From Bacteroidaceae bacterium (GTDB lineage: Bacteria > Bacteroidota > Bacteroidia > Bacteroidales > Bacteroidaceae): DNA of 64,000 nt. Positions 3,323 to 63,597 of this stretch are shown piece by piece. The DNA is taken from contig JAGBTN010000018.1 of NCBI GenBank assembly GCA_017631315.1, forward strand, positions 159,941 through 223,940, read 5' to 3'. Made by a program: the position numbers and the translations under genes. The stretch's first letter is position 1, and each line of letters starts with the position of its first letter. Below the pieces are notes generated by a model. That model saw nothing but the letters and a program-made list of their open reading frames with translations. It ran no database searches and was not told the DNA's origin.

Positions 3323-3420
3323 AGGTTGACCTTTTTGTACAGAAAGGTTAACCATTATGGCCAAATAGGTGAACCTTTCCAGCAATAATGCTTAACCATT
3401 CTTCGCGGAATGGTTAACGA
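3323..3420. repeat. 22-bp-period quasi-palindromic array A
   Basis: About four and a half units, each 22 bp, lie between two convergent genes. Each unit carries a dyad of the form AGGTTRACCW (AGGTTGACCT, AGGTTAACCA, AGGTGAACCT, TGCTTAACCA, TGGTTAAC) plus a 12-nt spacer. Three spacers are themselves near-palindromes (TTTTGTACAGAA, TTATGGCCAAAT, TTCTTCGCGGAA), so a palindrome centre falls about every 11 bp. The bases differ from arrays B-I but period and symmetry are the same. It is the most divergent member of the family. Confidence 0.7.
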
Positions 3421-3461
3421 AGTTTTTCTTGAAGGTTTTGGCGAGTTGTGCAGACGGCAGC

Positions 3462-3830
3462 CTATTTGCTTTTTTTCAACTCGTGGGGAATACGGAAACT
3501 CGTGTAGAGTTCCAATATGCAGGCAATGGCAAGGGCGACCACCCATTCCCTTCGGCGGAAAGGTCCCCAGTTGTTTAGTTGCATACTCATCATGACCAAT
3601 GCGAAGACAAACATGCAGCAGGCAAGTAATTGCTGGCGACGCAAACGGATGAGCACAAAGTCGTTTCCGAGATATTCCGCCCTTACTCGCATGAGAGCAA
3701 ACATAAGCGTGCCGATGCCATAGACGTACATGCTAATCGTGGGGTACTTGACGAACACAGCAATGCCGACGAGCATCAACACCAATCCCGTGCGGAAGCA
3801 CAAGTTTTCAAGAGGACTCAGTTCTTTCAT
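3462..3830 (-). CDS. Small four-helix membrane protein, unknown function
   Basis: A 122-residue protein with four predicted membrane segments (about residues 12-28, 30-46, 66-84 and 92-110), the second pair separated by a charged loop RRQQ. The C-terminus is basic. It is transcribed in the same direction as the FtsB-like gene, whose stop codon is only 20 bp upstream, so the two are probably co-transcribed and this protein may act at the envelope or division site. No catalytic motif is visible and I do not recognise the family with certainty. Confidence 0.7.
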   Translation of the reverse strand: MKELSPLENLCFRTGLVLMLVGIAVFVKYPTISMYVYGIGTLMFALMRVRAEYLGNDFVLIRLRRQQLLACCMFVFALVMMSMQLNNWGPFRRREWVVALAIACILELYTSFRIPHELKKSK

Positions 3831-3850
3831 TCAGCCGTAATGCGTAATCT

Positions 3851-4174
3851 TTAGTCTTCGAATTCCAATTCTTCCGTTTCTCCAACAAAGACAAACACGT
3901 CTTCGTTAGGGCGCTTCATGTGGTAACGTTCGCGTGCAATCTTTTCTACAGCCTTCGGATTGCTCTCCAATTCACGAATCTTCTTGTCGGCCTCGTCGTA
4001 TTGCTGCTTGTAATTCGCAATCTCCCGACGCAACATGTCGATGCGCGCCCTGCGGGGCTGGCGGTTCAATATGCTGTCCTCGTCCACAATGCCAACAATG
4101 AGTGCGATAATAAGAACCGTAAGCAGATATTTGTGCCTACGCATGAAATGCCATACAGAATGTATTTTGCTCAT
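3851..4174 (-). CDS. FtsB/DivIC-family septum formation initiator
   Basis: A 107-residue bitopic protein: short cytoplasmic N-terminus, one membrane segment (about residues 15-34), then a periplasmic coiled coil (IDMLRREIANYKQQYDEADK) and the family's terminal ARERYHMKRPNEDVFVF pattern (KIAREKYxMxxPxE). It belongs to the DivIC/FtsB family that bridges FtsL and FtsQ in the divisome. I chose the Met at 4174 rather than the upstream Met at 4261, because a Bacteroidetes -7 box (4199-4206) lies 25 bp upstream and would be inside a longer ORF. It is divergent from dnaX. Confidence 0.88.
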   Translation of the reverse strand: MSKIHSVWHFMRRHKYLLTVLIIALIVGIVDEDSILNRQPRRARIDMLRREIANYKQQYDEADKKIRELESNPKAVEKIARERYHMKRPNEDVFVFVGETEELEFED

Positions 4175-4198
4175 AAGGTGCCTGCTGTTTATTTTGTG

Positions 4199-4206
4199 CA
4201 AAATTA
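4199..4206 (-). promoter_or_regulatory. -7 box for the ftsB-like gene
   Basis: On the minus strand this reads TAATTTTG, matching TAnnTTTG. It lies 25 bp upstream of the chosen start and supports that start. No clear -33 TTTG is seen at the usual distance. Confidence 0.6.
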
Positions 4207-4250
4207 AGAAGAAATTGATAATATAAAAAGAAGAATTGAGAATAATTTTG

Positions 4251-4258
4251 TAACTTTG
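4251..4258 (+). promoter_or_regulatory. -7 box for dnaX
   Basis: TAACTTTG, 42 bp before the dnaX start, back to back with the ftsB promoter. The -33 element is not obvious. Confidence 0.6.
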
Positions 4259-4300
4259 CACAAAATAGCAAATGGTAAATAACTAAAAGGTTAGTGACAG

Positions 4301-6070
4301 ATGGAAGAATACATGGTTTCGGCCCTTAAATATCGCCCCCTCAATTTCGACTCCGTTGTAGGTCAGCGTTCGTTGACGACTACACTGAAGAATGCCATAA
4401 CCTCTGGGAAACTGGCGCATGCCTACCTCTTTTGCGGCCCTCGTGGCGTGGGCAAAACCACATGCGCCCGTATATTTGCCAAAGCAATAAACTGCTTCGA
4501 CCCCCAAGAGGGCGGAGAACCTTGCGGAAAATGCGAAAGCTGCCTGTCGTTCGAACAACAGCGTTCCATGAATATCCACGAACTTGATGCCGCCAGCAAC
4601 AACTCTGTGGATGACATCCGAGAACTGTGCAAACAAGTGCTTATCCCGCCTCAGACCGGACGCTACAAGGTGTTCATCATCGACGAGGTGCATATGCTCT
4701 CCGCTGCAGCCTTTAATGCCTTTCTCAAAACACTGGAAGAACCACCATCGTATGTAATCTTCATCCTTGCAACAACCGAGAAACACAAGATACTTCCAAC
4801 CATCTTGAGCCGCTGTCAAGTCTATGACTTCCAGCGAATGACAACTCAAAATACCATCGACCATCTGATGTATGTCGCCCAGAAGGAAGGATACACGGCA
4901 GAGCTGGAAGCACTCTCCTTGATAGCAGAAAAGGCCGATGGCGGAATGCGCGACGCCCTCTCCATCTTCGACCAAATGGTCAGTTTCTCCGCAGGAAACC
5001 TCACATACGACAATGTCTGCAAGAACTTAAATGTACTCAGCCAAGAATACTACTTCCAACTTGTAGATTATTTCCTCGAATCGAAAGTCCCCGAATGTTT
5101 ACTTCTCCTTAACGACGTGTTGCAAAGAGGCTTCGACGGCGGTAATTTCATTGCCGGACTTGCCACCCATATGCGTAACCTTCTGGTCAGTCGGGATGTC
5201 GTGACACTGCCTCTCCTTGAGATGAGCGAAAGGATGCGCAACCGTTATCAGGAACAAGCGCAGCGGTGCCCCATACGTTTCGTATACAAAGTGCTCAAAC
5301 TTGCCAATGATTGCGACCAAGCCTATCGGACAAGTCGCAATAAACGATTGCAGGTCGAAATATGCCTAATACAGAGTGCTGTCGCCGCTGAGCCTGCGGG
5401 CGAGGATGATCCTGCCCCTGCAAAAACACTTCAACCTATAGCCAAGAAGGCGGCAACGGCAATTCCTCCTGTTGAGAAAGCACCTTCTGCATCTCCCGCA
5501 GCCCCAATCCCGCCTTCTGTTTCGCCGACTCCTGCTCCTGTGGCTGGGACGGCTCCCAAACCATTGGCTGCAACTGCATCACCAATCGCCCCGGAAAGTG
5601 CTGCGCCAAAGAAACTGATGAAGGTTTCGTTCAAGAACTTTGGTGCAGGAAAGAAAACAGAAGAAAAAAAGAATGAGGAAGAAGTCAAGACGGTTGAGTA
5701 TCTGAAGGAACCGATAAATGAAGAAAGACTGGGGTTGGCCTGGTATGCTTTCATCGATTCCCTGCCACACGACAGTGTTGCGCTTGCCCAACGCCTCAAG
5801 GGGTTACAACCAATAGTAAAGGACGACAATACGGCATTACTCATCGTCAGCAACCAACAGGTTCAGCAAACCGTGGATAACCTGATGACTCAAATTCTCA
5901 GCACGATGCGTCAGGAATTGAAGAACTATGAGTTCTCCATCGTGACCCAACTTGAGGAGATTCGTGAGGTTACAAAGTCATATAGTGCGCCCGAAATTCT
6001 GAAAATAATGAAGGAGCAAAATGCAGATGTTGGCGAACTTGTGAGTCGCTTACAGCTCTCTTTTGACTGA
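4301..6070 (+). CDS. dnaX: DNA polymerase III subunit gamma/tau
   Basis: Clamp-loader ATPase of the replisome. AAA+ motifs are complete: Walker A GPRGVGKTT (residues 46-54), a Cys cluster of the zinc module (CFDPQEGGEPCGKCESC), Walker B IIDEVHML, sensor 1 ATTEKHK and the SRC box of the arginine finger. Residues ~365-450 are a Pro/Ala-rich linker, then a Lys/Glu-rich stretch and a C-terminal tau-like domain. At 589 residues it is of usual length for Bacteroidetes DnaX. No frameshift heptamer was looked for beyond a glance; the AAAAAAAG run at 5665 in a Lys-rich stretch could be checked for slippage to gamma. Confidence 0.97.
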   Translation: MEEYMVSALKYRPLNFDSVVGQRSLTTTLKNAITSGKLAHAYLFCGPRGVGKTTCARIFAKAINCFDPQEGGEPCGKCESCLSFEQQRSMNIHELDAASNNSVDDIRELCKQVLIPPQTGRYKVFIIDEVHMLSAAAFNAFLKTLEEPPSYVIFILATTEKHKILPTILSRCQVYDFQRMTTQNTIDHLMYVAQKEGYTAELEALSLIAEKADGGMRDALSIFDQMVSFSAGNLTYDNVCKNLNVLSQEYYFQLVDYFLESKVPECLLLLNDVLQRGFDGGNFIAGLATHMRNLLVSRDVVTLPLLEMSERMRNRYQEQAQRCPIRFVYKVLKLANDCDQAYRTSRNKRLQVEICLIQSAVAAEPAGEDDPAPAKTLQPIAKKAATAIPPVEKAPSASPAAPIPPSVSPTPAPVAGTAPKPLAATASPIAPESAAPKKLMKVSFKNFGAGKKTEEKKNEEEVKTVEYLKEPINEERLGLAWYAFIDSLPHDSVALAQRLKGLQPIVKDDNTALLIVSNQQVQQTVDNLMTQILSTMRQELKNYEFSIVTQLEEIREVTKSYSAPEILKIMKEQNADVGELVSRLQLSFD

Positions 6071-6116
6071 ACTTTTGTTAATAATATCTTATACGCAACA
6101 CTTTAATCTGCATTTA

Positions 6117-6148
6117 TTTGCGTGGTTAGAAAAAATGTTTTATCTTTG
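6117..6148 (+). promoter_or_regulatory. Promoter of the MORN-glgB operon
   Basis: TTTG at 6117-6120, 20 bp spacer, TATCTTTG at 6141-6148: a canonical Bacteroidetes promoter 20 bp before the MORN start. Confidence 0.85.
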
Positions 6149-6167
6149 CGCGCAGTAAAGATAGGAC

Positions 6168-7304
6168 ATGATGAAGCATTCTGCTTTCTTACTATATATC
6201 ATTTTTAGCCTTCCCGCTTTTTGCCTCCATGCTCAGCAGATAAAAATAGGGAACCATACGTTTCCGGGAGGTGGCGAATATCAAGGCGAAATGTTCAAGG
6301 GTAAACCTTACGGAACAGGTAAGACGGTTTACCCCAATGGCGATTATCATGAGGGACAGTATGTCAAAGGTAAACGTCAAGGTCAAGGAATATATCAGTT
6401 TGCCGATGGCGAGAAGTATGATGGCGAATGGTTCCAGGATCAGCAGCATGGCAAGGGCATTTATTACTTTGCCAATAACAATCGCTACGAAGGTCTTTGG
6501 TTTCGCGATTATCAGCAAGGTCAAGGCACGATGTATTACTACAACGGCGATATCTATATAGGTTCCTGGTTTCAAGACAAGCGCGAAGGAGCCGGTCGTT
6601 ATACATATGCTCAAGGTGGAGCCTATTACGAAGGCGAATGGAAGAATGACATGAAAGACGGTCAGGGAATCTTCGACTGGATGGATGGCAACCGCTATGA
6701 GGGCTCTTGGCGTGAGAATCAGAAGCACGGCAAGGGCACTTTTACTTATGCGACAGGCGATTCCTATACAGGCGAATGGAGCGACGACCAACAACACGGG
6801 AGAGGCATCTTTGTCTTTGCCGACGGCAATCGTTATGAAGGACAATATGTTCGCGGACAACGAACAGGCGAAGGCATATATACATTCGCTAATGGCGATA
6901 AATATGTAGGACACTTCTCCGAAGGCGAACAGGATGGAACTGGAACCTTTACGTGGCACACCGGAGCCTATTACATTGGCCAATGGCAGCGTAACAAGCA
7001 ACATGGCTCGGGCAAATACCATTGGGCTAATGGCGATGAATATGAAGGCCAATGGGCAGAAGGGCTTCTTGACGGAGAAGGTATTCTACGACAGGCAGAC
7101 GGAGTTCGCTTCAAGGGGACATTCCGTAAGGGAGTTAAAGAAGGAAAAGGCATTCTCGAGGATGCCAACGGCATACGTTATGAAGGCAACTTCAGCGGCG
7201 ACAAGAAGAACGGCGAATTCGTGGAAAAGGACAAAAACGGTCAGTTGTTGCGCAGGGTTGTCTATCGAGACGGGATTCCTGTCAGTACTATTGAAAGTAA
7301 TTAA
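6168..7304 (+). CDS. Secreted MORN-repeat protein (14 repeats)
   Basis: A signal peptide (cleavage likely after LHA, about residue 23) is followed by 14 tandem MORN repeats of 23 residues (form YEGEWxxxxxHGxGxxxxANGxx) that fill nearly the whole 378-residue protein. MORN repeats form an elongated beta sheet that binds lipids or proteins; here the product should be periplasmic or outer-membrane associated. It lies 11 bp before the branching enzyme gene under one promoter, but the enzyme is cytoplasmic, so the functional link is unclear. Start could be 6168 or the adjacent Met at 6171. Confidence 0.88.
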   Translation: MMKHSAFLLYIIFSLPAFCLHAQQIKIGNHTFPGGGEYQGEMFKGKPYGTGKTVYPNGDYHEGQYVKGKRQGQGIYQFADGEKYDGEWFQDQQHGKGIYYFANNNRYEGLWFRDYQQGQGTMYYYNGDIYIGSWFQDKREGAGRYTYAQGGAYYEGEWKNDMKDGQGIFDWMDGNRYEGSWRENQKHGKGTFTYATGDSYTGEWSDDQQHGRGIFVFADGNRYEGQYVRGQRTGEGIYTFANGDKYVGHFSEGEQDGTGTFTWHTGAYYIGQWQRNKQHGSGKYHWANGDEYEGQWAEGLLDGEGILRQADGVRFKGTFRKGVKEGKGILEDANGIRYEGNFSGDKKNGEFVEKDKNGQLLRRVVYRDGIPVSTIESN

Positions 7305-7315
7305 ATCACCCACAT

Positions 7316-9421: not shown

Positions 9422-9444
9422 GATTCTTAATGCGTTACATATAT

Positions 9445-9475
9445 AGTGCTGCTCTTTCACAGGGCGGCACTTTTT
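9445..9475 (+). terminator. Intrinsic terminator of glgB
   Basis: AGTGCTGC and GCGGCACT form an 8-bp stem around a 12-nt loop, followed by TTTTTG. Confidence 0.75.
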
Positions 9476-9500
9476 GTTATATTATACTATGCAGGTGTCG

Positions 9501-9610
9501 TTGGCCAACTACACGTGTAAAGACCGCCAACTACACGTGTAAAGACCGCCAATTACACGTGTGAAGTTTGCCAATTACACGTGTGAAGTTTGACAACTAT
9601 ACTGTAGTTG
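9501..9610. repeat. 22-bp-period quasi-palindromic array B
   Basis: Four full 22-bp units and a partial fifth, core ACACGTGT (perfect palindrome), joined by GACCGCC or GTTTGCC. The array ends in ACTGTAGTTGTTTTTC, similar to the ends of arrays E and I. It lies between the glgB terminator and the ABC operon promoter. The gene-free stretch 9422-9749 therefore holds a terminator, this array and a promoter. Confidence 0.85.
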
Positions 9611-9678
9611 TTTTTCAACCTCTCCAGGGGCCCGATTCGACATTAAGCGTTAAATAAATGTTAAAATTACAAATAGTG

Positions 9679-9710
9679 TTGGAAGTTGGCACAAATATGT
9701 CATACATTTG
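9679..9710 (+). promoter_or_regulatory. Promoter of the ABC/GntR operon
   Basis: TTG at 9679-9681, 21 bp spacer, TACATTTG at 9703-9710. It overlaps an upstream in-frame start (9708), which argues for the start at 9750. Confidence 0.7.
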
Positions 9711-9749
9711 CAGTGTACTATTACGCTATTACACCTAAAAAGTAGATTT

Positions 9750-10448: not shown

Positions 10449-10565
10449 CTCTCCCTTAAGGGAGAGAACCTATCAGTATCCAAATCATTTAACACACAAC
10501 TGCCCATGACCCTGCGAAGCAGTTCCCTCGCCCTAAAGGGAGAGGGGTAGGGAGAGGGTCTTTTA
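10432..10565. repeat. GC-rich palindromic element, inverted pair (copy 1)
   Basis: Two ~35-bp arms in inverted orientation (10432-10466 and 10527-10565) flank 60 bp. The left arm begins AAAAGACCCTCTCTAACTC; the reverse complement of the right arm begins AAAAGACCCTCTCCCTACC, and both continue into a CTCCCTTxAGGG palindrome. The element fills the gap between two operon genes, supplies the stop codon of the first and ends 4 bp before the start of the second. Related copies are at 37754-37851, 37965-37998, 42204-42231, 52245-52291 and 58042-58074. MITE- or REP/BIME-like; no transposase is in the window. Confidence 0.8.
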
Positions 10566-10569
10566 TGAT

Positions 10570-11415: not shown

Positions 11416-11419
11416 ACCT

Positions 11420-18165: not shown

Positions 18166-18211
18166 TAAAAAAACTAGGCGTGTTAAACTGGCCAATTTAA
18201 CACGCCTAGTT
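18166..18211 (-). terminator. Terminator of folC, built from the first units of array C
   Basis: AACTAGGCGTGTTAAA and TTTAACACGCCTAGTT form a perfect 16-bp stem around CTGGCCAA. On the minus strand a run of seven T follows, so it is a textbook intrinsic terminator for the grpE-dnaJ-folC transcript. Confidence 0.85.
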
Positions 18212-18272
18212 TGCCATCTTAACACGTTAAGTTGACTGACTTAACACGCGATGTTTTGTTAACACACGTAAG
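18172..18272. repeat. 22-bp-period quasi-palindromic array C
   Basis: About four units with 22-bp spacing and cores GGCGTGTTAA, TTAACACGCC, TTAACACGTTAAG and TTAACACGCG, joined by TGGC/TGCC-like linkers. The first two units make the folC terminator. The gene-free stretch 17980-18351 holds this array and the galM promoter. Confidence 0.8.
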
Positions 18273-23161: not shown

Positions 23162-23206
23162 TTAATGATTGTTATTTTGAGGTTACTTGTTCTTCTTCGA
23201 AACTTA

Positions 23207-23286
23207 TCGTGTGTAGTTGGCAAACTTCACGTGTGTAATTGGCAAACTTCACGTGTGTAGTTGCCCAACTTCACGTGTGTGGTTTG
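23207..23286. repeat. 22-bp-period quasi-palindromic array D
   Basis: Three and a half very regular 22-bp units with core CACGTG and linkers GTTGGCAAACTT, ATTGGCAAACTT and GTTGCCCAACTT. The array fills the gap between the ABC-F start and the glucosaminidase stop and ends exactly at that stop codon. Confidence 0.9.
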
Positions 23287-24204
23287 TTATCTTATCCGGA
23301 GTATTTCTCCGACTTCTACTGCTTTGGGCTCCTCCCATTTGTTCAGTTTGCAGAGCGACTCCAGGCGTATGCCGTAGAGTTGGGCAATGTCGTGGAGACT
23401 TTGATTGGCTTCTACAATGTGAATTGGATTTTTTCGGAACTCGCGTGAAGCGCAACTGCGTTTCTTCTCCATGTAGATGATGTCGCCAGCCGTTGGGGCA
23501 TAGTCGAGGGGCAAGTCGTTATACTTGTATAGTTTGCGCAGACTGATGCCTGTCTCTTTGCTGATGGTGGCCATGTCGTCGCCCACTTCTACGATGATGA
23601 AGTAGTTCTTGTTGCCTTTGTAAACTGTATGGCGTTGCCAGAACTCACTCGTTGTTGTGACGCTTGCGGCTGTTGTGCTTTTGGCGCTTGAGCGGTATTT
23701 CCCTGTGTCGAACTGATTGAGATTGTACATCTCGATGGTGCGGATAAGGGCATCTGCGTAGTTGGGATTGGTGGCATAGCCGGCAGCCTTAAGTCCGCGA
23801 GCCCATCCCTTATAGTCGGTCTTGCCGAGTTTGTAGAGACCTTGGTATCGTTTTCCTTGCAGAAACTTTGAGTGGTCCACATAACTTTCGCGGGCACTCT
23901 TGTACTTGCGGAACTTCTCGTTCCTCGCGTCGTCGTCGCGAAGGACATAAGGACCTGTCCATGAACTGCCCACTTTGATGCCAAAGTGGTTGTTGGCCTG
24001 TGTAGCCAATGTGCTTCGGCCGGCATTGCTTTCTAAAAGACCTTGTGCAAGGGTGATGCTTGCTGGGATGCCATATTGGTTCATCTGCTCGATGGCCCAA
24101 CCCTTATACTTGTCAATGTATGACCAGAAAGCCTGATTGGTGCGCTGAGCCTGAACGAAAAGGCTGGCAAACAAAAATATGAGAGTGAGAATCTTGTTTT
24201 TCAT
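23287..24204 (-). CDS. Secreted GH73 glucosaminidase with two LysM domains
   Basis: Peptidoglycan hydrolase: signal peptide (cleavage after VQA, ~residue 20), a GH73 domain with the catalytic Glu in GLLESNAGRS and NNHFGIK, a linker rich in Ser/Thr (~170-185), then two LysM modules (about 195-245 and 255-303). 305 residues with the start at 24204; the upstream Met at 24228 would lie above the -7 box at 24217-24224 and is rejected. Likely role is cell-wall turnover or daughter-cell separation. Confidence 0.93.
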   Translation of the reverse strand: MKNKILTLIFLFASLFVQAQRTNQAFWSYIDKYKGWAIEQMNQYGIPASITLAQGLLESNAGRSTLATQANNHFGIKVGSSWTGPYVLRDDDARNEKFRKYKSARESYVDHSKFLQGKRYQGLYKLGKTDYKGWARGLKAAGYATNPNYADALIRTIEMYNLNQFDTGKYRSSAKSTTAASVTTTSEFWQRHTVYKGNKNYFIIVEVGDDMATISKETGISLRKLYKYNDLPLDYAPTAGDIIYMEKKRSCASREFRKNPIHIVEANQSLHDIAQLYGIRLESLCKLNKWEEPKAVEVGEILRIR

Positions 24205-24216
24205 AATTACGCGGCG

Positions 24217-24224
24217 CAAAAGTA
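24217..24224 (-). promoter_or_regulatory. -7 box of the glucosaminidase gene
   Basis: TACTTTTG on the minus strand, 12 bp before the start, implying a very short leader. No clear -33 TTTG. Confidence 0.55.
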
Positions 24225-24503
24225 ACAAAAAAAAGTCACACCACGAAATTATGTCTTAACTTTATAGCCTTATATGATGTTTCCGGCACAAAAGCCTATA
24301 CGTATGAAACTAATGCACTGCCCGTAGAAGAACAAAAAGTGCCGCCATGCACATTTTTGTCCTCTCCCCAAATACGTCAAACAATAACTGCAGACGATAG
24401 TGTTTTATAATCTAAGGTATAGGAAATCTTCCAATAAAAACACATCCGTTTAGGAACTGAATCATCGTGTATCTTCCCAGCATTAATGTTGCAATACCGC
24501 TTT
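24225..24503. other. Gene-free stretch, nothing recognised
   Basis: 279 bp between the glucosaminidase promoter and the 3' end of the PorE-like gene. It is AT-rich, has no convincing ORF, no 22-bp array, no strong hairpin and no RNA-gene pattern that I can recognise. Confidence 0.5.
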
Positions 24504-28825: not shown

Positions 28826-28970
28826 ACTCAACAACTTTTTTGAGAATTTTCAAGTCAAATGAGTTGCTAAGATAGGCAAGAGGCCGCTGCAGTTGTCGGG
28901 AATTAATTCTGTTGTCGGAGTTCAGAGCAGTGTTGCCATAATCCGCCTCTTGTTGGCTTGCCATAAACAT

Positions 28971-29050
28971 CACGTGTTAAGTCGGGTAACTTAACGTGTT
29001 AAGATGGCCAACTAAGCGTGTTAAGTTGGGCAATTAAACAGTAGTTGTTT
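28971..29050. repeat. 22-bp-period quasi-palindromic array E
   Basis: Three and a half units with cores CACGTGTTAAG, TTAACGTGTTAAG and TAAGCGTGTTAAG, linked by TCGGGTAAC, ATGGCCAAC and TTGGGCAAT; it ends in ACAGTAGTTGTTTTC, the same tail as arrays B and I. Confidence 0.85.
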
Positions 29051-35117: not shown

Positions 35118-35810
35118 ATGCCCGACCGTCACTACAGCAAGACCATTGAGCAACATCTGCTTCAACCCTTGAAGGAGGCCGATTCTGAAGGACTCGTACG
35201 ACTGCTTTCGTCGTTCTCCAGAAGTGAGCAGCGCACTGCTGGCTATATGCTTGGAGAGCGTTTGTTGCTGGATTGCCCTGCCGAGCTGTACTGGCAGATG
35301 ACGGAGGCTCTTGTGTGTTATGACAGCAAGGCATATCTTATCACACTGATGAAGACGTTTCTCCTGCGTTTGAGTCGGGGCACGGCATCGCTTTCCGATG
35401 TGCCTTTCGGGCGTCTTGCAGCAGGTTTCAATGAGGTGGAAAGGCAGAAGGTGGCACTGCTTCTGTTGCCCGAACTCGAGCAGCCGAAACAGGTGGAACA
35501 ACTTTTCCAACTTCTTGGCCTTGCCAAGGGACGTGAGCAGCTGGTCTATTTGATTCGTGTAGACACTTTGCCTTGCCTTTTTCTCTTGCTCCGTTCCCTG
35601 CGTTATGTGGAACACGATAGGGCAGAAGTCTTGAAGGTTGCCCGCCAACTCATGAAGCGCGGCAGTGGTTGCAGTTTCAATCTTGCCAGCATTGTCAAGG
35701 TGGCATTTGGCCTCGATGAACTCTCGGGCACATTCTCTCTCCGCCTTCAACCCTACCAGATTGCAAGGCTCGAACAGTCGTACGAAGCATTCTGCCAAAG
35801 TGTGGGCTGA
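35118..35810 (+). CDS. Conserved-looking helical protein of unknown function
   Basis: A 230-residue cytoplasmic protein with no signal peptide, membrane segment or catalytic motif. It looks all-helical with Leu/Gln/Arg-rich helices (for example LLLPELEQPKQVEQLFQLLG), perhaps helical repeats. The start follows the tRNA terminator by about 75 bp. Strand choice rests on base composition, position and the array that starts exactly after its stop; an antisense frame of similar length (35112-35798, minus) is rejected. I do not recognise a family. Confidence 0.65.
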   Translation: MPDRHYSKTIEQHLLQPLKEADSEGLVRLLSSFSRSEQRTAGYMLGERLLLDCPAELYWQMTEALVCYDSKAYLITLMKTFLLRLSRGTASLSDVPFGRLAAGFNEVERQKVALLLLPELEQPKQVEQLFQLLGLAKGREQLVYLIRVDTLPCLFLLLRSLRYVEHDRAEVLKVARQLMKRGSGCSFNLASIVKVAFGLDELSGTFSLRLQPYQIARLEQSYEAFCQSVG

Positions 35811-35895
35811 AACTATACGTGTATAGTTGGCAAACTTAACGTGTTAAGTTTACAAAGTTAACGTGTTAAGTCGGGCAACTTAACGTGTGTCGTTT
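35811..35895. repeat. 22-bp-period quasi-palindromic array F
   Basis: Four units begin at the base after the stop codon of the preceding gene. Unit 1 dyad is AACTATACGTGTATAGTT, unit 2 is AACTTAACGTGTTAAGTT: both arms of the dyad changed together, so symmetry was kept while sequence changed. Linkers are GGCA, TACA, CGGGC. Confidence 0.9.
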
Positions 35896-41651: not shown

Positions 41652-41680
41652 TTGCCCCAACGGACGCGTCCGTTGGGCAA
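41652..41680. terminator. Perfect-looking hairpin after the FISUMP gene
   Basis: TTGCCCCAACGGACG and CGTCCGTTGGGCAA form a 14-bp stem with one bulged C and no loop (centre ACGCGT). Probably a terminator or cruciform; no long T run follows. It merges into array G. Confidence 0.6.
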
Positions 41681-41760
41681 AGTTCACGTGTGAAGTTGCC
41701 CGACTTTACGTGTGAAGTTTGCCAACTTCTCTGCAGTAAATGGCAAAGTTCTCTTGTGGC
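41671..41760. repeat. 22-bp-period quasi-palindromic array G
   Basis: Four units: cores CACGTGTGAAG, TTACGTGTGAAG, then two decayed units with CTCTGCAGT and CTCTTGTGG, linked by TTGCCC, TTTGCC and ATGGCA. The gene-free stretch 41616-41942 holds the hairpin, this array and the rpmE2 promoter. Confidence 0.8.
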
Positions 41761-51812: not shown

Positions 51813-51967
51813 ATCTTTGCCCAAAACTTACTCCGAGTAGTATTATTTTGGCTTTATCGTGCAGATAAAGGATGTTATACATGATAATCTAACATGTTAT
51901 ATCAGCGAATTGTCGATACAGACCTGTTTTTATTGTGACGTGTGTGGTCTTCAGACCATGTAAACAA

Positions 51968-52003
51968 GAGAATCCCGATGCACAAATGTGTATCGGGATT
52001 CTC
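51968..52003 (-). terminator. Terminator after the 50-aa gene
   Basis: GAGAATCCCGATGCAC and GTGTATCGGGATTCTC form a 16-bp stem with one mismatch and a 4-nt loop, 37 bp after the small gene's stop. TTGTTTAC follows on the minus strand. Confidence 0.78.
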
Positions 52004-56813: not shown

Positions 56814-56865
56814 ACTTGTAGAAGTTTAGTTAATAAATATTGGTTAATTATTATATTTTTCGCAC

Positions 56866-56897
56866 CAAAGTTAGTATTATTTGCAATACGACACAAA
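56866..56897 (-). promoter_or_regulatory. Promoter of the 1505-aa gene
   Basis: On the minus strand TTTG (56894-56897), 20 bp, TAACTTTG (56866-56873), 52 bp before the start. Confidence 0.88.
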
Positions 56898-56953
56898 GAA
56901 AAGTTAAATTTTTTATGTCTTGTACACTTAATTATTTAATGTGTAGGTACAAT

Positions 56954-56996
56954 TTACCCCTTTGCGGCATCTCTTTCGAGGCGTGCAAAGGGGTAA
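56954..56996 (-). terminator. Hairpin after asd
   Basis: TTACCCCTTTGC and GCAAAGGGGTAA form a 12-bp perfect stem, with an inner GCATCTC/GAGGCGT part. It follows the asd stop by 31 bp; the T run is weak. Confidence 0.7.
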
Positions 56997-57027
56997 TTAT
57001 GCTTTTTTTATGTGTCCGACAGTTGTC

Positions 57028-58038
57028 TTACTTGATGTTGCCTACGCTGATGAGGTATTCGGCTATCTGTACGGCGTTGAGGGCTGCTCCTTTTTTTATC
57101 TGGTCGCTAACGAGCCAGAAGGTGATACCGTTGGGGTTGGCAAGGTCTTTGCGTATGCGGCCAACGAAGACGTCGTCGCAGTTTTCGTGGAAGAGTGGCA
57201 TGGGGTATTTCTTCTCTTCGGGGCAGTCTTCGAGTGCGAGTCCTTGTCCGTTGCGTACAGCTTCTCTGAACTCTTCTACGCTGACGGGGCGTTCTGTTTC
57301 TGCCCATACGCATTCGCTGTGGCAGCGGAGTGAGGGTACACGGACGCACATGGCACTGACTTGGCAGTCGGTGTGCATGATTTTCTTGGTCTCGTTGTAC
57401 ATCTTCATTTCCTCTTTTGTGTAGCCGTTGTCGCAGAAGACGTCAATCTGCGGTATGACATTGAAGGCGAGCTGATAGGCGAACTTCTCGATGGTTGGCT
57501 TTTCGCCTGCGAGTACTTGGCGTGATTGTTCGAAGAGTTCTGCCATTGCTGCTGCTCCTGCTCCGCTGGCGGCCTGGTAGCTGGAAACGTGTACGCGCTT
57601 GATGTGCGAGAGGTTTTCCAGTGCCTGCAGTGCTACGACCATCATGATGGTGGTGCAGTTGGGGTTGGCTATGATGCCGCGTGGGCGGTTGAGTGCGTCT
57701 GCAGCATTGCATTCGGGCACGACGAGGGGCACGTCTTCGTCCATGCGGAACGCGCTGGAGTTGTCTATCATTACGGCTCCGTGCTTGGTGATGGTTTCGG
57801 CAAATTCCTTGCTTGTGCCGCCACCTGCGCTTGTGAAGGCGATGTCTACGCCTTTGAAGTCGTCGTTATGCTGCAGGAGTTTTACCTCTATTTCTTTTCC
57901 TCGGAAGGTGTATTTGCTGCCTGCGCTGCGTTCGCTGCCGAACAGGAGCAGTTCGTCGATGGGGAAATTTCTCTCGTCCAGCACTCGCAGGAACTCTTGT
58001 CCTACGGCACCGCTTGCGCCTACTATTGCTACTTTCAT
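57028..58038 (-). CDS. asd: Aspartate-semialdehyde dehydrogenase
   Basis: Reduces beta-aspartyl phosphate to the semialdehyde, the branch point to lysine/diaminopimelate, threonine and methionine. NADP motif [15 protein letters not shown], active-site Cys in [15 protein letters not shown] (~residue 128), [16 protein letters not shown] and the His in [10 protein letters not shown]. 336 residues. GC-rich element copy 6 lies in its 5' leader. Confidence 0.97.
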
Positions 58039-58041
58039 AAA

Positions 58042-58074
58042 GCCTCCTCCAAACCTCCCCCTCCAGGGAGAGGT
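58042..58074. repeat. GC-rich palindromic element (copy 6)
   Basis: GCCTCCTCCAAACCTCCCCC then TCCAGGGAGAGGTTT: a single arm placed 3 bp upstream of the asd start codon, so it forms a hairpin in the leader right at the ribosome site. Confidence 0.75.
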
Positions 58075-58110
58075 TTTTGTTATTTTAATGTTAATGGATT
58101 ATTGCGGCTG

Positions 58111-58118
58111 CAAAGATA
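58111..58118 (-). promoter_or_regulatory. -7 box of asd
   Basis: TATCTTTG on the minus strand, 72 bp before the start; no clear -33. Confidence 0.6.
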
Positions 58119-58205
58119 CAAAAAAAGTTTAGAGTGTGTTGTTTGACGTGAGGAGATTTTGTGTTTGTTGTGTGTTTTTGATAAATGTCAAATGTAAGGA
58201 GGGAA

Positions 58206-58292
58206 AACTTCACGTGTAAAGATGTCAAACTTCACGTGTAAAGATGCCCAACTTCACGTGTGTAGTTGACCGTTTTAACGTGTGTAGTTTTC
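58206..58292. repeat. 22-bp-period quasi-palindromic array H
   Basis: Four units, cores CACGTG (three) and TAACGTG, in the divergent gap between asd and the antiporter-protease gene; linkers GATGTC, GATGCCC, GTTGACC. The stretch 58039-58486 (448 bp) holds copy 6 of the GC-rich element, two promoter boxes and this array. Confidence 0.88.
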
Positions 58293-58448
58293 AATCTTCT
58301 TTTGGCAGGTTTTACTTGCGACTGTATGGGGTTGTTTTTCAGATTGTTTTGTCCGGTTTGCTCTGATGTGTGTTGTGTTTGGGTGAGGTAGTGTTTGTGT
58401 GCGCGAAAAAAGTTGAAAGCGGAAGTCGGAATGTTGAAAGATTTTTTG

Positions 58449-58456
58449 TATCTTTG
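58449..58456 (+). promoter_or_regulatory. -7 box of the antiporter-protease gene
   Basis: TATCTTTG, 30 bp before the chosen start at 58487; rules out the upstream in-frame start at 58370. Confidence 0.65.
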
Positions 58457-58486
58457 CTCCCGATTTATACGTTTTACGGTCGACGA

Positions 58487-61400
58487 ATGGTGTTTCTCAG
58501 TACATTTTTATGCTTGGCGCAGGCTCAAGTGCAACAGTCTCTGTTGGCTTCGGCTCTGATTACCGACCCCACATGGGTTTTCTCGGTGGTGTTGGGCATC
58601 ATTCTGTTTGCTCCGTTGTTGCTTCGGCCGTTGCGTATTCCTCCCGTCATTGTGCTTATTCTGGCGGGTATTCTTGTTGGCCCATACGGATTCAACCTTT
58701 TGGCGCACGACCGTTCTTTTGAACTCTTTGGGCAGGTAGGCATATATTATATAATGTTCCTTGCCGGTCTGGAACTGGAAATGGGCAGCGTGGAGCAATA
58801 TGGACGCGATGGCCTTCGTTTTGGCTTCCTCACCTTTGCCATTCCTTTTGTGATAGGCATTGCCTCGAGCATGCTGCTGCTCGACTTCAGTTTGGCAACA
58901 AGTATTCTGCTTGCCTGCATATATGCCAGCCACACACTCGTGACCTATCCCATCGTAGGACGTTATGGCTTGAGCCGGCATCGCACGGTTGTCGTCACGG
59001 TTGTTGCTACGGCTTTTGCGCTTTTTGCTGCCCTGCTTGTCCTGGCGTTGGTCATCGATGGGCAAAACCCCGACACATCGTGGCTCACCTGGCTGTTCTT
59101 TGGCCTGAAATGCGTGTCATACATCGCCTTCGTCATCTTTGTCTTTCCCCGTATAGGCCGTTGGTTCATGCGCCGCTACGACGACAGTGTCATGCAATAT
59201 ATATTTGTACTTCTGCTCGTCTTCCTCAGTGCATCGCTTGCCAAACTGGTGGGACTGGAAGGCTTGCTCGGTGCGTTCCTTGCCGGTTTGATAGTCAATC
59301 GACTCATTCCGAAGACGAGTCCTCTGATGACACGCCTTGAATTTGTAGGCAATGCCCTGTTCATCCCATATTTCCTGATAGGCGTAGGCATGATAATCGA
59401 CCTCGGCATCCTTGTCCGACACCCCGAAGCCCTCTGGGTTGTCGTCGTGATGGTGCTGACGGGAGCCTTGACCAAATGGCTGGCCTCTGCAATAATGGCA
59501 TGGACCATGGGCGAGAGCCGTCACAGCATGTGGCTCATGTTTGGCCTGACCAATGCACATGCCGCCGGTGCTCTTGCCATTGTGACCATAGGCACAGCGC
59601 CGGAAGTGCAACTCATGAACGACGAGGTTTTGGGCGGCACAGTCATGCTCATTCTCTTCAGTTGCCTCATCAGCGGTTTTGCCACAAACCATGGTGCCAA
59701 GCAACTTGCCTTGAGCGATACGTCGCTCGAAGACAACCGAGGCTCCTATCACGGCAAATGTCTCATTACTTACAGTCAGGAAGACAATGTCGATGTAATG
59801 ACCCAACTTGCCATACTTATCCGCAATCCATTCATCCCCGATAACCTTATGGGACTTGCCGTAGCCTATGCCGGCAGCGACAACGATGGCGTAGAGATGC
59901 ACCGGCGAGGACGCATCCTGCTCGAAAAGGCACAGATGATTGCCGCTGCGGCAGATGTTCCTATGGCTACACTCAACCGCATGAGCACTAACATTGCAGG
60001 CGGCATACTCCATACGATGAACGAATATGACTGCGGTGAGGTAATCATGTGCCTCAACGACCGCACCACCGGTATGGCAAAGTCTTCCCTGGGAACGGTC
60101 ATCGATAACGTCGTAGGCGGCACCCACCGTGAGGTGATGGCTGTGCGTAGCATTGTTCCGCCCGGAACAATCAGAAGAGTGGTTGTAGCCGTTCCGCAGA
60201 AAGCAGAATACGAAGTGGGGTTCTACAAATGGCTGGAACATATTTGCCGAATAGGCGAGGAACTCGATTGCCATCTGGAATACCATGCGCATGCCGAGAC
60301 CTTACCTTATATAAAAGGCTATATGGAACAAAAGCACAGCCACGTCCGTTCGCACTACAACGAAATGAACCGCTGGATGCAGTTCCTCAATCTGCGTAAC
60401 GAAATGGGACTCGACACCATGCTGGTAGCCGTTACGGCAAGGCCGGGCTTCATTTCCTATCAGAACAAGTTCGAGGAACTGCCATTGCTCATCCATCGTT
60501 ACTTCAGCAACACGAACGTGATGCTGCTTTTCCCCGACCAATGGGGAGAACCACAGGAAAGCATCTCCGTCTTTATGCCTAACGGTACTGCAGTACAAAG
60601 GCAACCACGTTCCATTCGCGATTGGCTGCGCCACAAGTTCCTTACAGCACGCCGTTCTGCCCTGACGCTGTTCCTCCTGTCGCTTCCCTGCTTTTCTCTT
60701 CTCTCTACGGCACAACGTCCTCGCTTCGACAAGATGTCGCCAATGGTTAGGCTTCAGGTTCTTTCCAACTCTTCCTCGAAGACACACGGCAGAGAACATC
60801 GTCAAGCAGCATTGTCAAACCGAGGCGAGAGAATGCTTACGCTCGTGCAGACCACCGACGAAGATGTGCTCGAGGCCTATGGTTGCCACAGCTTTGCACA
60901 CTGGGGAGACATTCATGCCGTGTCTGTTCCGAAGTCGGAACTGGCAGCTCTGTCGCTTCGTCCGGAGATTTTGCGCATAGAAGGGGGCAGAGTGTGCGAT
61001 GCCCACATCGATACGTCTGCCATCATCATCCGTTCCGCACCGTTGCGCGAGGCAACACCTTATCGCTCAGCATACACGGGCAGAGGCGTTGTGGTGGGCG
61101 TTATGGACATCGGTTTCGACTTGACAAACCCCACTTTCTATAGTCGTGACCTCGGTACATATCGTGTCCGTTCTTTCTGGGACATGCTCGATTATGACGG
61201 AGAAAGCGAACAAGAGATGCCCATAGGAGCGGCTTACACTTCGAGTGCAAGCGTATTACGGAAGGCTCATTCTTCCGATAGTCGTCTGCAATACCACGGA
61301 ACTCATACGGCCAGCACTGCAGCCGGAAGCGGATATGACTCTCCATATGTGGGCATGGCTCCCGATGCAGACATCTGTCTGGTGTCTAATTGTGTCTCTT

Positions 61401-62743
61401 CCGACAAGGAAATGGTCCCAGACTCTTTGTGGGATTTCTATGGTCCTGTTGCCGACTTGCTCGGTTTTGAATACATCTTCCGCTATGCCGACAAGGTGGG
61501 GAAACCCTGTGTGGCAAGTTTCAGCGAGGGCTCTCACGAGGACCTTTGGGGCGAAGCACAACTCTACAGCGTTGTTCTCGACAGTCTGGTACGCCCCGGA
61601 CGCCTTATCTGTGCCTCGGCAGGCAATCAGCATCTCTATGGCACATACATGAAAAAAACAGTTGGGAAGGAGCGTGTGGCATCGCTTATTCAGCCAACAG
61701 GAAACACAACTTACATGATGTTGCGCAGTCGCGGCGACTTCAAAATTCAACTGGACTTTATGGCTTCGCCAACATTGCTGCATAGAAGTTATGAGATGCC
61801 GGTCGAGGATATTCTTGCTGCCGAGGATAGTCTTCTTGTTGATACTATTACCGCAGGCGGTCTGACATACGAATTTATCTTTGGTGCCTATCCTTGTTGT
61901 TACGATTCCACTCAACTTGTGACCGATGTCGTTATCAGCAAGATTGGGAAAGGCTTGATTCTTACCGTACAGATGGGCATAGGTGTGAGTGGTGCATCTT
62001 CGGAGGTGGAGGTTTTTCAGCAAATAGGTTATCTCACCAGCCAACCGGGATATCTCAATTATACAGATGCCCAATCAAGTCACAACATTCATTATCCTGC
62101 TTCCGACCCAAGTGTTATATGTGTGGGAGCGACTTCCTATAAGACCGGCTTCTATAACTTCGACGGGATATGGCAATCGAGAGACAGAGGTACAGGTGGA
62201 GTAGTGGCGACATATAGCAGTCGGGGCCCAACGCTTTTGGGTAATATCAAACCCGATGTTGTTGCTCCGGGAACGAATATTGCTGCGGCGTTCAACAGTT
62301 ACTACGTAGAGATGAATCCCGATTATAACACTTCGGAACACGATGTTGCCCGTTATTCGTTCAAGGGTAGGGACTATGCATGGGGCATGGAATCGGGCAC
62401 AAGTATGTCGTGCCCCATGGTGGCTGGCATCATAGCACAGTGGATGGAGGCCGTGCCAACGTTGTCGCGCGAGCAGGTGCTTGAGGTCTTTCAGGCCACT
62501 TGCCGTCGTCCGGATTCATCGCTGACGTATCCCAACAACGATTATGGCTATGGTGAGATTGATGCAGAGGCAGGTCTTGACTATCTGCTTTCGAACTACG
62601 ATGGCCTTGCTTCGGTGCCTTCTTCGCTCAAGCAGCGCGGAATATACGATTTGCAGGGCAGGCGAGTGGAACATCCTTCGAAGGGAATATATATTATTAC
62701 AGACGAGAAGGGAACTAGAAAGAAGGTTTTCCTGAACAAATAA
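58487..62743 (+). CDS. Fusion: CPA2 cation/proton antiporter + USP-like domain + subtilisin-like protease with T9SS tail
   Basis: One uninterrupted frame of 1418 codons. Residues ~15-405 are a CPA2-type (KefB/NapA-like) antiporter with about twelve membrane segments (VILAGILVGPYGFNL, MFLAGLELEM, GLLGAFLAGLIVNRL). Residues ~421-705 look like a soluble universal-stress-type region. At ~714-743 comes RHKFLTARRS plus ALTLFLLSLPCFSLLSTAQ, a complete signal-peptide pattern. Residues ~745-1380 are an S8 subtilase with Asp874 (VMDIGFD), His937 (YHGTHTAS), oxyanion Asn in SAGNQ and Ser1306 (GTSMSCPM). The end IYDLQGRRVEHPSKGIYII is a T9SS-type tail. Separate neighbours fused by loss of a stop, or a real fusion, are both possible. 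lolD follows 15 bp later. Confidence 0.88.
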   Translation: MVFLSTFLCLAQAQVQQSLLASALITDPTWVFSVVLGIILFAPLLLRPLRIPPVIVLILAGILVGPYGFNLLAHDRSFELFGQVGIYYIMFLAGLELEMGSVEQYGRDGLRFGFLTFAIPFVIGIASSMLLLDFSLATSILLACIYASHTLVTYPIVGRYGLSRHRTVVVTVVATAFALFAALLVLALVIDGQNPDTSWLTWLFFGLKCVSYIAFVIFVFPRIGRWFMRRYDDSVMQYIFVLLLVFLSASLAKLVGLEGLLGAFLAGLIVNRLIPKTSPLMTRLEFVGNALFIPYFLIGVGMIIDLGILVRHPEALWVVVVMVLTGALTKWLASAIMAWTMGESRHSMWLMFGLTNAHAAGALAIVTIGTAPEVQLMNDEVLGGTVMLILFSCLISGFATNHGAKQLALSDTSLEDNRGSYHGKCLITYSQEDNVDVMTQLAILIRNPFIPDNLMGLAVAYAGSDNDGVEMHRRGRILLEKAQMIAAAADVPMATLNRMSTNIAGGILHTMNEYDCGEVIMCLNDRTTGMAKSSLGTVIDNVVGGTHREVMAVRSIVPPGTIRRVVVAVPQKAEYEVGFYKWLEHICRIGEELDCHLEYHAHAETLPYIKGYMEQKHSHVRSHYNEMNRWMQFLNLRNEMGLDTMLVAVTARPGFISYQNKFEELPLLIHRYFSNTNVMLLFPDQWGEPQESISVFMPNGTAVQRQPRSIRDWLRHKFLTARRSALTLFLLSLPCFSLLSTAQRPRFDKMSPMVRLQVLSNSSSKTHGREHRQAALSNRGERMLTLVQTTDEDVLEAYGCHSFAHWGDIHAVSVPKSELAALSLRPEILRIEGGRVCDAHIDTSAIIIRSAPLREATPYRSAYTGRGVVVGVMDIGFDLTNPTFYSRDLGTYRVRSFWDMLDYDGESEQEMPIGAAYTSSASVLRKAHSSDSRLQYHGTHTASTAAGSGYDSPYVGMAPDADICLVSNCVSSDKEMVPDSLWDFYGPVADLLGFEYIFRYADKVGKPCVASFSEGSHEDLWGEAQLYSVVLDSLVRPGRLICASAGNQHLYGTYMKKTVGKERVASLIQPTGNTTYMMLRSRGDFKIQLDFMASPTLLHRSYEMPVEDILAAEDSLLVDTITAGGLTYEFIFGAYPCCYDSTQLVTDVVISKIGKGLILTVQMGIGVSGASSEVEVFQQIGYLTSQPGYLNYTDAQSSHNIHYPASDPSVICVGATSYKTGFYNFDGIWQSRDRGTGGVVATYSSRGPTLLGNIKPDVVAPGTNIAAAFNSYYVEMNPDYNTSEHDVARYSFKGRDYAWGMESGTSMSCPMVAGIIAQWMEAVPTLSREQVLEVFQATCRRPDSSLTYPNNDYGYGEIDAEAGLDYLLSNYDGLASVPSSLKQRGIYDLQGRRVEHPSKGIYIITDEKGTRKKVFLNK

Positions 62744-62758
62744 TGTTACATATAGGAA

Positions 62759-63439
62759 ATGACGAACATGATAAAAATACGTGGCATAAAGAAGAGTTTC
62801 GGCAGTCTTGAAGTGCTTAAGGGTATTGATCTCGACATCGAACGCGGTAAGGTGATAAGCATTGTTGGTTCAAGTGGCGCAGGTAAGACGACACTTCTGC
62901 AAATCATGGGTACTCTTGATGAGGCCGACAGCGGCAGTGTGATTATCGATGGAGTGGATGTTATGAAGTTGAACGATGCCCAACGCTCGGCTTTTCGCAA
63001 TAAGCACATGGGCTTTGTTTTCCAGTTTCATCAGTTGTTGCCGGAGTTTACGGCTTTGGAGAATGTGATGATGCCTGCTCTCATAGGCGGTGTTCCCAAA
63101 CGTACAGCACGACAGCGTGCTGAGGAACTGCTTGGCTTCATGGGGCTCAAGAAGCGCTCTTCGCACAAGCCCAACGAACTTTCGGGCGGCGAGAAACAAA
63201 GAGTTGCTGTTGCAAGAGCTCTTGTTTGCAAGCCGGATGTGGTTTTTGCCGACGAGCCCAGCGGGTCGCTCGATACGCAGAACAAACAGGAACTGCACCG
63301 CCTTTTCTTCGATCTGCGAGACAAGATGGGGCAGACCTTCGTGATTGTTACGCACGACGAGCAACTGGCTTCTCTTGCAGACTGCAAGATTTCCATGAAG
63401 GACGGACGCATTACGGATATTACTGAAAGCGAATCGTAA
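62759..63439 (+). CDS. lolD: ABC ATPase, LolD/MacB type
   Basis: A 226-residue ATPase of the lipoprotein-release/MacB family: Walker [20 protein letters not shown], the long Q-loop segment [21 protein letters not shown], signature [15 protein letters not shown] and Walker [13 protein letters not shown]. LolD couples ATP hydrolysis to lipoprotein release by LolCE; those membrane genes are not adjacent here. Start 62759 or Met4 (62768). It is 15 bp after the protease gene and probably shares its mRNA. Confidence 0.92.
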
Positions 63440-63505
63440 GACGATAAGGACAAGGATTTGTATCCCTCTGGCTGCCATTGTCTTATGAATCTCTTTGTTA
63501 TAATG

Positions 63506-63597
63506 GAAAACATCTACTGTTAAGTTTGCCATAAAGGCGTGCCAAGTCGGGCAGTTTAACGTGCCTTGTTGGGCAACTTAACAGTAGATGTTTTTCG
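63506..63597. repeat. 22-bp-period quasi-palindromic array I, with terminal inverted repeats
   Basis: Three units between convergent genes, bounded by GAAAACATCTACTGTTAAG on the left and CTTAACAGTAGATGTTTTTC on the right, an almost perfect inverted pair. Inner cores are GGCGTGCC and TAACGTGCC, linkers TTTGCC, TCGGGC, TTGGGC. The right tail resembles the ends of arrays B and E. Confidence 0.85.

What the first reader, a model, noticed from the sequence alone, without database searches (positions are those of the whole stretch)
3323..63597. Nine intergenic arrays of a 22-bp-period quasi-palindromic repeat in 64 kb
Seen: arrays at 3323, 9501, 18172, 23207, 28971, 35811, 41671, 58206 and 63506, each of three to five 22-bp units, all outside coding sequence and mostly touching gene ends (array F starts at the base after a stop codon, array D ends at one). 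A unit is an ~18-bp dyad such as AACTTAACGTGTTAAGTT plus about four bases like TGGC. The linker with its flanks is also a near-palindrome (AAGTTTGCCAACTT), so palindrome centres fall every ~11 bp, about one helical turn. Sequence differs between arrays but period and symmetry do not. Inference: either binding sites for an unknown dimeric protein stacked on one DNA face (nucleoid or domain-border role) or RNA hairpin arrays at mRNA ends. I know of no described family with this form.
Basis: partly seen in the sequence, partly recalled or inferred. Interest (0 to 1): 0.88.

Follow-up and report, generated by a model that had tools for sequence, protein, structure and literature searches.

The report
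Regularly spaced 22-bp-step DNA elements
A group of uncultured gut Bacteroidales carries many short intergenic DNA elements built in exact 22-base steps and spaced more evenly than chance along the chromosome; the step length is kept while the letters change between species, which suggests protein docking sites rather than RNA hairpins.

Summary
The arrays belong to a family with about one copy per 7-10 kb of this genome, found in one clade of uncultured Bacteroidales. Orthologous arrays in the sister genome mostly differ by whole 22-bp units (10 of 12 changed gaps). Many copies are discrete elements of exactly 88 bp (4 x 22) from AAAAC to GTTTT. Unit sequence changes between species and between families in one genome; the period does not. 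Arrays lie in tandem, convergent and divergent gaps, so they are not specific to mRNA 3' ends. They are spaced more evenly than random intergenic picks (CV 0.45 against 0.80; 0 of 5000 shuffles). No target duplication, viral copy or consistent RAYT transposase was found. Best reading: a new variant of short interspersed repeat working at the DNA level, like E. coli BIMEs, as docking platforms read once per helical turn. A selfish element with spacing rules is a strong rival. No binding protein was identified; a Rep3-type initiator with its own 22-bp iterons was tested and does not match by motif.

The parts
3319..3420 (.). Array A, family F2 (GGTTAACC units); between convergently read frames
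   Evidence: Lag-22 segment 3323-3418; G023 copy is 22 bp (one unit) shorter
9500..9616 (.). Array B, family F1 (ACGTGT core), tandem gap; lies after a terminator-like hairpin at about 9446-9478 (seen by eye)
   Evidence: about one unit longer than in G023 (21 bp by flanks; shown as one unit)
18170..18257 (.). Array C, exactly 88 bp AAAAC...GTTTT; holds a perfect 17-bp stem whose pairing is kept in G023 by a two-sided change
   Evidence: not listed by TRF
23197..23285 (.). Array D, F1, tandem gap next to the stop codon of 23287-24228(-); several units changed together between G000 and G023
28964..29046 (.). Array E, F1, divergent gap between topA (-) and a glycosyltransferase (+); one unit longer than in G023
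35811..35895 (.). Array F, F1, starts at the base after the stop codon of 35118-35810(+)
41671..41760 (.). Array G, F1 with mixed cores, tandem gap before the ribosomal protein L31 gene; 22 bp longer than in G023
58204..58291 (.). Array H, F1, exactly 88 bp AAAAC...GTTTT, divergent gap
63507..63594 (.). Array I, exactly 88 bp, ends AAAACATCTACTG...CAGTAGATGTTTT; one of 16 such elements in this genome
   Evidence: terminal arms identical in G023
51869..51982 (.). Interval where sister genome G023 has an array and this genome does not; length difference exactly 66 bp

Best explanation
The arrays are members of a clade-specific family of short interspersed DNA elements. The typical member is 88 bp: four 22-bp units, that is eight 11-bp half-units in alternating orientation, bounded by AAAAC and GTTTT. 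They work as double-stranded DNA, not RNA. Each half-unit presents the same face of the helix once per turn, so an element is a multivalent docking platform for a DNA-binding protein that was not identified here; gyrase or an architectural nucleoid protein is a guess taken from the BIME comparison. Platforms several kb apart would set local chromosome domains or supercoil relief points. Shown: the geometry, intergenic placement, even spacing, whole-unit copy changes, indifference to gene direction, and turnover of sequence with geometry kept. Inferred: that a protein binds, which one, and the chromosomal role.
For: Exact period 22 in unlike sequence families and several species, other lags low in this genome. 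Size changes between sister genomes: 10 of 12 array gaps that differ by >= 11 bp are within 1 bp of a multiple of 22, against 2 of 9 array-free gaps. Exact 88-bp elements above the backward control in 9 of 19 clade genomes, slightly in 2 more; 32 of 32 elements of one subfamily are 86 bp although 74-104 was allowed. Even spacing: CV 0.46 v 0.77, 0.45 v 0.80 without the window, also significant in G023, G075 and G093. Families F1, F2 and F4 share one spacing series. Present in divergent, tandem and convergent gaps. F1 core diverges about 9% between sisters against 20% in nearby intergenic DNA.
Against: No binding protein found; HU-HIG copy number does not track arrays and the Rep3 iteron motif is not enriched in arrays. 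Spacing is not significantly even in G026, G008 and G034, with 6-11 arrays each, and G012 (4 arrays) and G096 (2) give no support. The low core divergence is partly ascertainment, because units were picked by their core. Excess of exact 88-bp elements is absent in 8 of 19 clade genomes. Several families in one genome are awkward for a single sequence-specific protein. In clade relatives lags 14 (41) and 8 (33) are also raised, though below lag 22 (77).
Confidence: 0.45

Rival explanations
1. Selfish non-autonomous mobile repeats (MITE- or REP-like), moved by an unknown enzyme that needs the 22-bp geometry. They survive away from promoters, and the even spacing reflects target immunity or selection.
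For: Discrete length and inverted ends. Species-specific amplification: 82 places in G026, 16 + 16 elements of one subfamily in G000 and G023 and none in 13 other genomes tested. Intergenic, far from start codons.
Against: No clear target duplication in the flanks listed. Sites stable between sisters: 20 of 20 arrays mapped from G000 and 23 of 24 from G023 have an array, some weak, at the same place. The RAYT family PF01797 is absent from array-rich G000, G005, G008, G023, G035, G075, G094 and G112, though present in G026 and G034 (genomes incomplete). Few near-identical pairs at two sites: none of 53 arrays in G000, 1 BLAST pair in G026 and 2 in G034 at >= 90% over >= 80 bp. None in viral contigs for the F1 pattern. 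Other transposase families were not searched.
Confidence: 0.33
2. Neutral minisatellites: an ancestral 22-bp repeat spread early and now drifts by slippage and unit turnover, without function.
For: Whole-unit length changes and units of one array changing together between sisters (array D) are what slippage gives; copy numbers run 2-6.
Against: Unlike unit sequences all keep period 22 while in this genome other periods stay at background. Exact 88-bp length with defined ends. Even spacing. Core less diverged than nearby intergenic DNA (with ascertainment bias).
Confidence: 0.12
3. RNA elements: each array is transcribed and folds into a long stem or hairpin series, acting as a bidirectional terminator or mRNA end protector.
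For: All nine arrays fold better than shuffles on both strands (z -1.9 to -9.9). A-tract before and T-tract after the element resemble bidirectional terminators. One two-sided change keeps a 17-bp stem in array C. Arrays sit close to stop codons (median 76 bp).
Against: 11 of 32 divergent gaps hold arrays. Core orientation is unrelated to gene direction (7:8). Fold pairs between sisters: 8 compensatory, 78 one-sided, 9 both broken. In 20 G026 elements the two arms of a unit never carry the same word. At least three arrays lie after a terminator-like hairpin of their own (by eye: window B, L026, L008).
Confidence: 0.08

Closest known systems
REP elements / BIMEs (BIME-2 binds gyrase; PMC2817692, passages)
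   Same: Abundant, intergenic, arrays of quasi-palindromic units in alternating orientation, suggested to bind proteins and organise chromosomes
   Different: Exact 22-bp step and 88-bp length; sequence families differ between related species; RAYT absent from 8 array-rich genomes; also in divergent gaps; even spacing
BrickBuilt MITE of Porphyromonas gingivalis (PMC4596501, passages)
   Same: Bacteroidales; short tandem repeat inside an intergenic element with terminal inverted repeats
   Different: Unit 23 nt with an unrelated sequence (AGAYCATARTATCCTCTCRTRTG); IS5-family ends GAGACCTTTGCA; about 19 copies. The same paper mentions 22-nt tandem repeats in strain W83 without sequence, which I could not compare
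Plasmid iterons of Rep_3 initiators (that some iterons are 22 bp is recalled)
   Same: Tandem sites spaced by two helical turns; this genome has a Rep3 gene with 22-bp repeats upstream
   Different: The local motif TTGGTGCG is not enriched in the dispersed arrays. G074 and G104 have the gene but no F1-pattern hit; array-rich G026 and G035 gave no Rep3 match
Eukaryotic satellite 'libraries' (recalled)
   Same: Fixed repeat length with sequence families that rise and fall between species
   Different: Short dispersed 88-bp elements in a bacterium, not long blocks

Membership tests
REP/BIME with RAYT | Alternating quasi-palindromic units, intergenic, high copy | tested here: met
REP/BIME with RAYT | Cognate RAYT (Y1) transposase in the genome | tested here: not met
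   PF01797 absent from G000, G005, G008, G023, G035, G075, G094, G112 but present in G026 and G034; genomes are incomplete, and RAYT can be lost
MITE | Terminal inverted repeats and fixed length | tested here: met
   86/88-bp elements with inverted ends; many F1 arrays share only AAAAC/GTTTT
MITE | Target site duplication or empty site | tested here: inconclusive
   No clear duplication in the flanks listed; one site differs by exactly 66 bp with short similar flanks in register with the units
MITE | Parent transposase with matching ends | not tested
   Only PF01797 was searched; DDE families were not
BrickBuilt | 23-nt unit and IS5-type terminal repeats | tested here: not met
   Unit length 22 and unrelated letters
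CRISPR | Repeats separated by unique spacers | tested here: not met
   Units are contiguous and similar throughout
Intrinsic terminators | Confined to the downstream side of genes | tested here: not met
   Divergent gaps 11 of 32, 11 of 30 with gaps >= 100 bp
Rep_3 iterons | Sites share the initiator's iteron motif | tested here: not met
   TTGGTGCG match not above shuffles in F1 or relatives' arrays; own non-F1 arrays 27% v 14% with 15 arrays
Protein docking sites | Protein binds the array | not testable with these tools
   No biochemical data

The most novel reading that the evidence does not exclude
The chromosome of this clade carries an evenly spaced set of architecture-coded DNA elements: eight 11-bp half-units, 88 bp, where selection keeps the geometry and lets the letters turn over, so that each species has its own vocabulary for the same platform. 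They would be the footprint of a helically stacked nucleoprotein particle that defines chromosome domains several kb long.
Probability: 0.25. Interest if true: 0.9.

Novelty: new variant of a known kind. Interest (0 to 1): 0.74.

Why it matters
Interspersed repeats are normally recognised by sequence. Here the constant is length and phase, with sequence replaced between related species, and copies are spaced regularly. If proteins dock there, it is a natural experiment on what sets bacterial chromosome domains, in an uncultured gut lineage. If they are selfish, it would be a mobile repeat whose mover reads geometry rather than letters. Either way the even spacing makes the open question of what REP-like repeats do directly testable.

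Tried and rejected
RNA-family search of the window: only the Bacteroidales SRP RNA and two tRNAs. BLAST of array B against plasmids: no match. RAYT (Y1) transposase as mover: not consistent, absent from eight array-rich genomes but present in two. HU-HIG DNA-binding proteins: present in 26 of 26 genomes tested, 2-21 matches each, no tracking. Rep3 initiator as array-binding protein: attractive because its upstream repeats have a 22-bp step and it was found only in this genus, but its motif is not found in the arrays, relatives carry it without F1-pattern arrays, and array-rich G026 and G035 gave no match; kept only as something noticed. Loss of DnaA: rejected, DnaA in 26 of 26. Orientation by replication strand: 62 of 92 F1 units in G000 point one way, not significant when counted by array (Fisher 0.42; G023 0.69). 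Pair covariation: weak. PDB profile search with the Rep3 alignment: nothing at E <= 0.1. No structure prediction was run.

Paper searches: BrickBuilt, 3 papers; 22-bp/Bacteroidetes terms, 2; RUG12391, none; P. gingivalis 22-nucleotide repeats, 1; BIME/gyrase, 5; Rep_3/DnaA/iterons, 14; nucleoid/regularly spaced, 4; Cryptobacteroides repeats, none; interspersed repeats/88 bp, none. I read passages, not whole texts, of PMC5771137, PMC4596501 and PMC2817692; all others were seen as search listings only.

Full report
WHAT IS THERE. The window is 64 kb of an uncultured Bacteroidales genome (Bacteroidales small SRP RNA) of 2.68 Mb in 21 contigs, 86.6% complete. TRF reports period 22 for eight of the nine.

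GENOME AND CLADE. The pattern ACGTGTNNNGTTGNCNAACTNNACGTGT with up to 3 mismatches has 153 places in the genome and 0 in the backward control. Among 61 genomes it matches 13, all within the 37 genus members tested, and none of the 24 from other families. In 25 further genus genomes it matches 12. The backward control hit once each in G028, G054 and G072. Counts run from 387 (G008) to 1. All 18 relatives with TopA at least 85% identical have at least one match, and the richest genomes are among them; two less close genomes, G009 (39 matches) and G107 (25), also have some. In genome contigs (84,980 species) the exact pattern lies in 84 stretches, all titled as uncultured Bacteroidales, Bacteroidaceae or Prevotellaceae; where the title names a host it is a ruminant (water buffalo, goat, yak, roe deer). 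None in viral contigs.

PERIOD CONSERVED, SEQUENCE NOT. In 400 kb of this genome taken without regard to arrays, lag 22 gives 40 segments, lag 44 gives 25, and the other lags 1.0 on average. Clade relatives give 77 at lag 22 and 64 at lag 44 in 686 kb, part of it fetched around topA, with lags 14 (41) and 8 (33) next. Genus members outside the clade give 13 in 399 kb, not above lags 14, 8 or 21; other families of the order give 1 in 272 kb. The units fall into unlike families with the same step: ACGTGT (F1), GGTTAACC (F2, includes array A), ACATGT/CAATTG (F4), GC-rich GCACGC and others. A TTGGCAA-like linker (at least 6 of 7) is in 70% of 30 F1 consensus units of this genome, 47% of its 15 other arrays, and 59% and 32% of relatives' F1-like (32) and other (38) arrays, against 4-6% in shuffles. 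F4 lacks it.

DISCRETE ELEMENTS. AAACATCTNCTG-N{50,80}-CAGNAGATGTTT finds 16 elements in G000 and 16 in G023 and none in 13 other genomes; all 32 are exactly 86 bp. With the outer A and T this is 88 = 4 x 22. In 464 kb, the AAAACW-to-WGTTTT distance has a single peak (9 against a mean of 0.66) at printed length 91, which is 88 after correcting for the script counting bracket characters. AAAAC-N78-GTTTT exceeds its backward control in G026 (82 v 9), G075 (37 v 4), G000 (31 v 10), G023 (25 v 4), G112 (21 v 7), G093 (19 v 5), G094 (17 v 4), G035 (10 v 4) and G034 (6 v 1), slightly in G005 (12 v 8) and G008 (10 v 7), and not in the other 8 clade genomes. It does not clearly do so in any of 14 other genus members or 6 outside genomes. 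In the window, arrays C, H and I are exact 88-bp elements.

HALF-UNITS. The 86-bp elements are written in 11-bp half-units from a small vocabulary: seven 4-letter words make up 154 of 192. Words on the two sides of a linker or core agree in 9 of 96 and 2 of 64 cases, 0.13 expected. In 20 G026 elements the inverted positions carry the same word in none of five neighbouring comparisons nor in the inner mirrored pair (0 of 20 each; shuffles 13-25%); the outer mirrored pair is at chance (0.35 v 0.38), and direct repeats exceed shuffles clearly in two of four comparisons (z 3.3, 2.9). In the G000/G023 elements the same comparisons are mostly within 2.3 sd of shuffles. The dyad is therefore partial (7.4 of 11 pairs against 5.9), and the unit is better described as a directional repeat with a quasi-palindromic frame.

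EVOLUTION BETWEEN SISTERS. Of 48 arrays here, 20 had both flanks mapped in the fetched part of G023, and all 20 have an array there (lag-22 score 13 or more). Of 53 in G023, 24 mapped, and 23 have at least a weak one here (score 9 or more). The exception (window 51869-51982) differs by exactly 66 bp. Of 25 array-bearing gaps, 12 differ in length by 11 bp or more, and 10 of these are within 1 bp of a multiple of 22; of 46 array-free gaps, 9 differ and 2 are. In 12 aligned F1 arrays the core changes at 6-18% per position (19 of 201 overall), positions 8 and 15 at about 32%, nearby intergenic DNA at 20%. The core figure is biased downward because units were found by their core. Further out, arrays recur near the same genes with different unit families (after GT2 in G035, G008, G075, G094, G034; beside g7 in G008, G094, G026, G093, G096, G034). 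As 41 of 99 gaps of at least 150 bp carry arrays, this is suggestive only.

NOT SPECIFIC TO RNA ENDS. Arrays occupy 26 of 104 tandem, 7 of 24 convergent and 11 of 32 divergent gaps of at least 60 bp (own gene predictor; 4 of 48 arrays not placed, and array I fell below the score used). In tandem gaps the core points with the gene in 7 arrays and against it in 8. As RNA the nine arrays fold with z -1.9 to -9.9 over both strands, but in 14 arrays compared between sisters the fold pairs show 8 compensatory, 78 one-sided and 9 double-broken changes.

EVEN SPACING. Against random picks of intergenic gaps: 48 arrays, CV 0.46 v 0.77 (0 of 5000 shuffles), 2 of 43 spacings under 3 kb against 8.5 expected, median 8.7 kb. 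Without the window and with gap length corrected for the array itself: 40 arrays, CV 0.45 v 0.80, 0 of 5000, 2 of 36 under 3 kb against 7.5. G023: 46 arrays, CV 0.56 v 0.82, P 0.003, median 6.9 kb (not independent of G000). G075 P 0.015 and G093 P 0.001; G008 0.12, G026 0.28, G034 0.35; G012 (4 arrays) 0.80, and G096 (2) says nothing. Families F1, F2 and F4 take part in the same series.

MECHANISM. Phase of 11 and 22 bp kept through sequence replacement, indifference to gene direction, even spacing and whole-unit changes point to a constraint on double-stranded DNA geometry. The closest working model is BIME-2, which binds gyrase (PMC2817692, passages). The binder here is unknown. The main rival is a selfish element whose mover reads geometry and keeps its distance from other copies. 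I cannot separate the two with the data in hand.

A SIDE LEAD. Looking for iteron-binding proteins, I found a protein with Rep3_N (E 4e-7), weak Rep3_C (0.007) and weak DnaA_N (0.011) domains (L265). It has matches, some weak or partial, in 35 of 101 genus genomes including this one and in 0 of 197 other genomes of the order. In G000 it lies beside ParA; 22-bp repeats, most of the TTGGTGCG type, lie upstream in most of the 14 genomes looked at. Skew changes from negative to positive there in G000 and G023, as at an origin. Over the other genomes with valid data the left side is negative in all and the right side is positive in 5 of 9. Its iteron motif is not enriched in the dispersed arrays, so I do not join the two.

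Noticed in passing
L265:7088-10953 (G000:C3, about 185-189 kb): A Rep3-type initiator with a weak C-terminal DnaA_N match lies beside a ParA gene, with 22-bp repeats upstream, at a change of GC-skew sign in G000 and G023: possibly a plasmid-type replication origin in this chromosome. DnaA is also present.
   Followed up: partly
window 58370-62743: One 1457-aa frame holds a Na+/H+ exchanger domain (77-439) and a subtilase domain (1233-1395), an odd combination.
   Followed up: no
L269 and L270, upstream of the Rep3 gene: Very long 22-bp arrays, about 12-16 units, lie in this region in G005 and G094.
   Followed up: no
L079, L130, L131 (G110) and L123 (G122): Genus members outside the clade have a few 11-bp-step repeats (TGTACGTAGGC, AAGACCTAACA), again one helical turn.
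   Followed up: no
G000 contigs C12, C16, C19: F1 cores lean to one orientation by replication-strand skew (62 of 92 units), not significant by array.
   Followed up: partly
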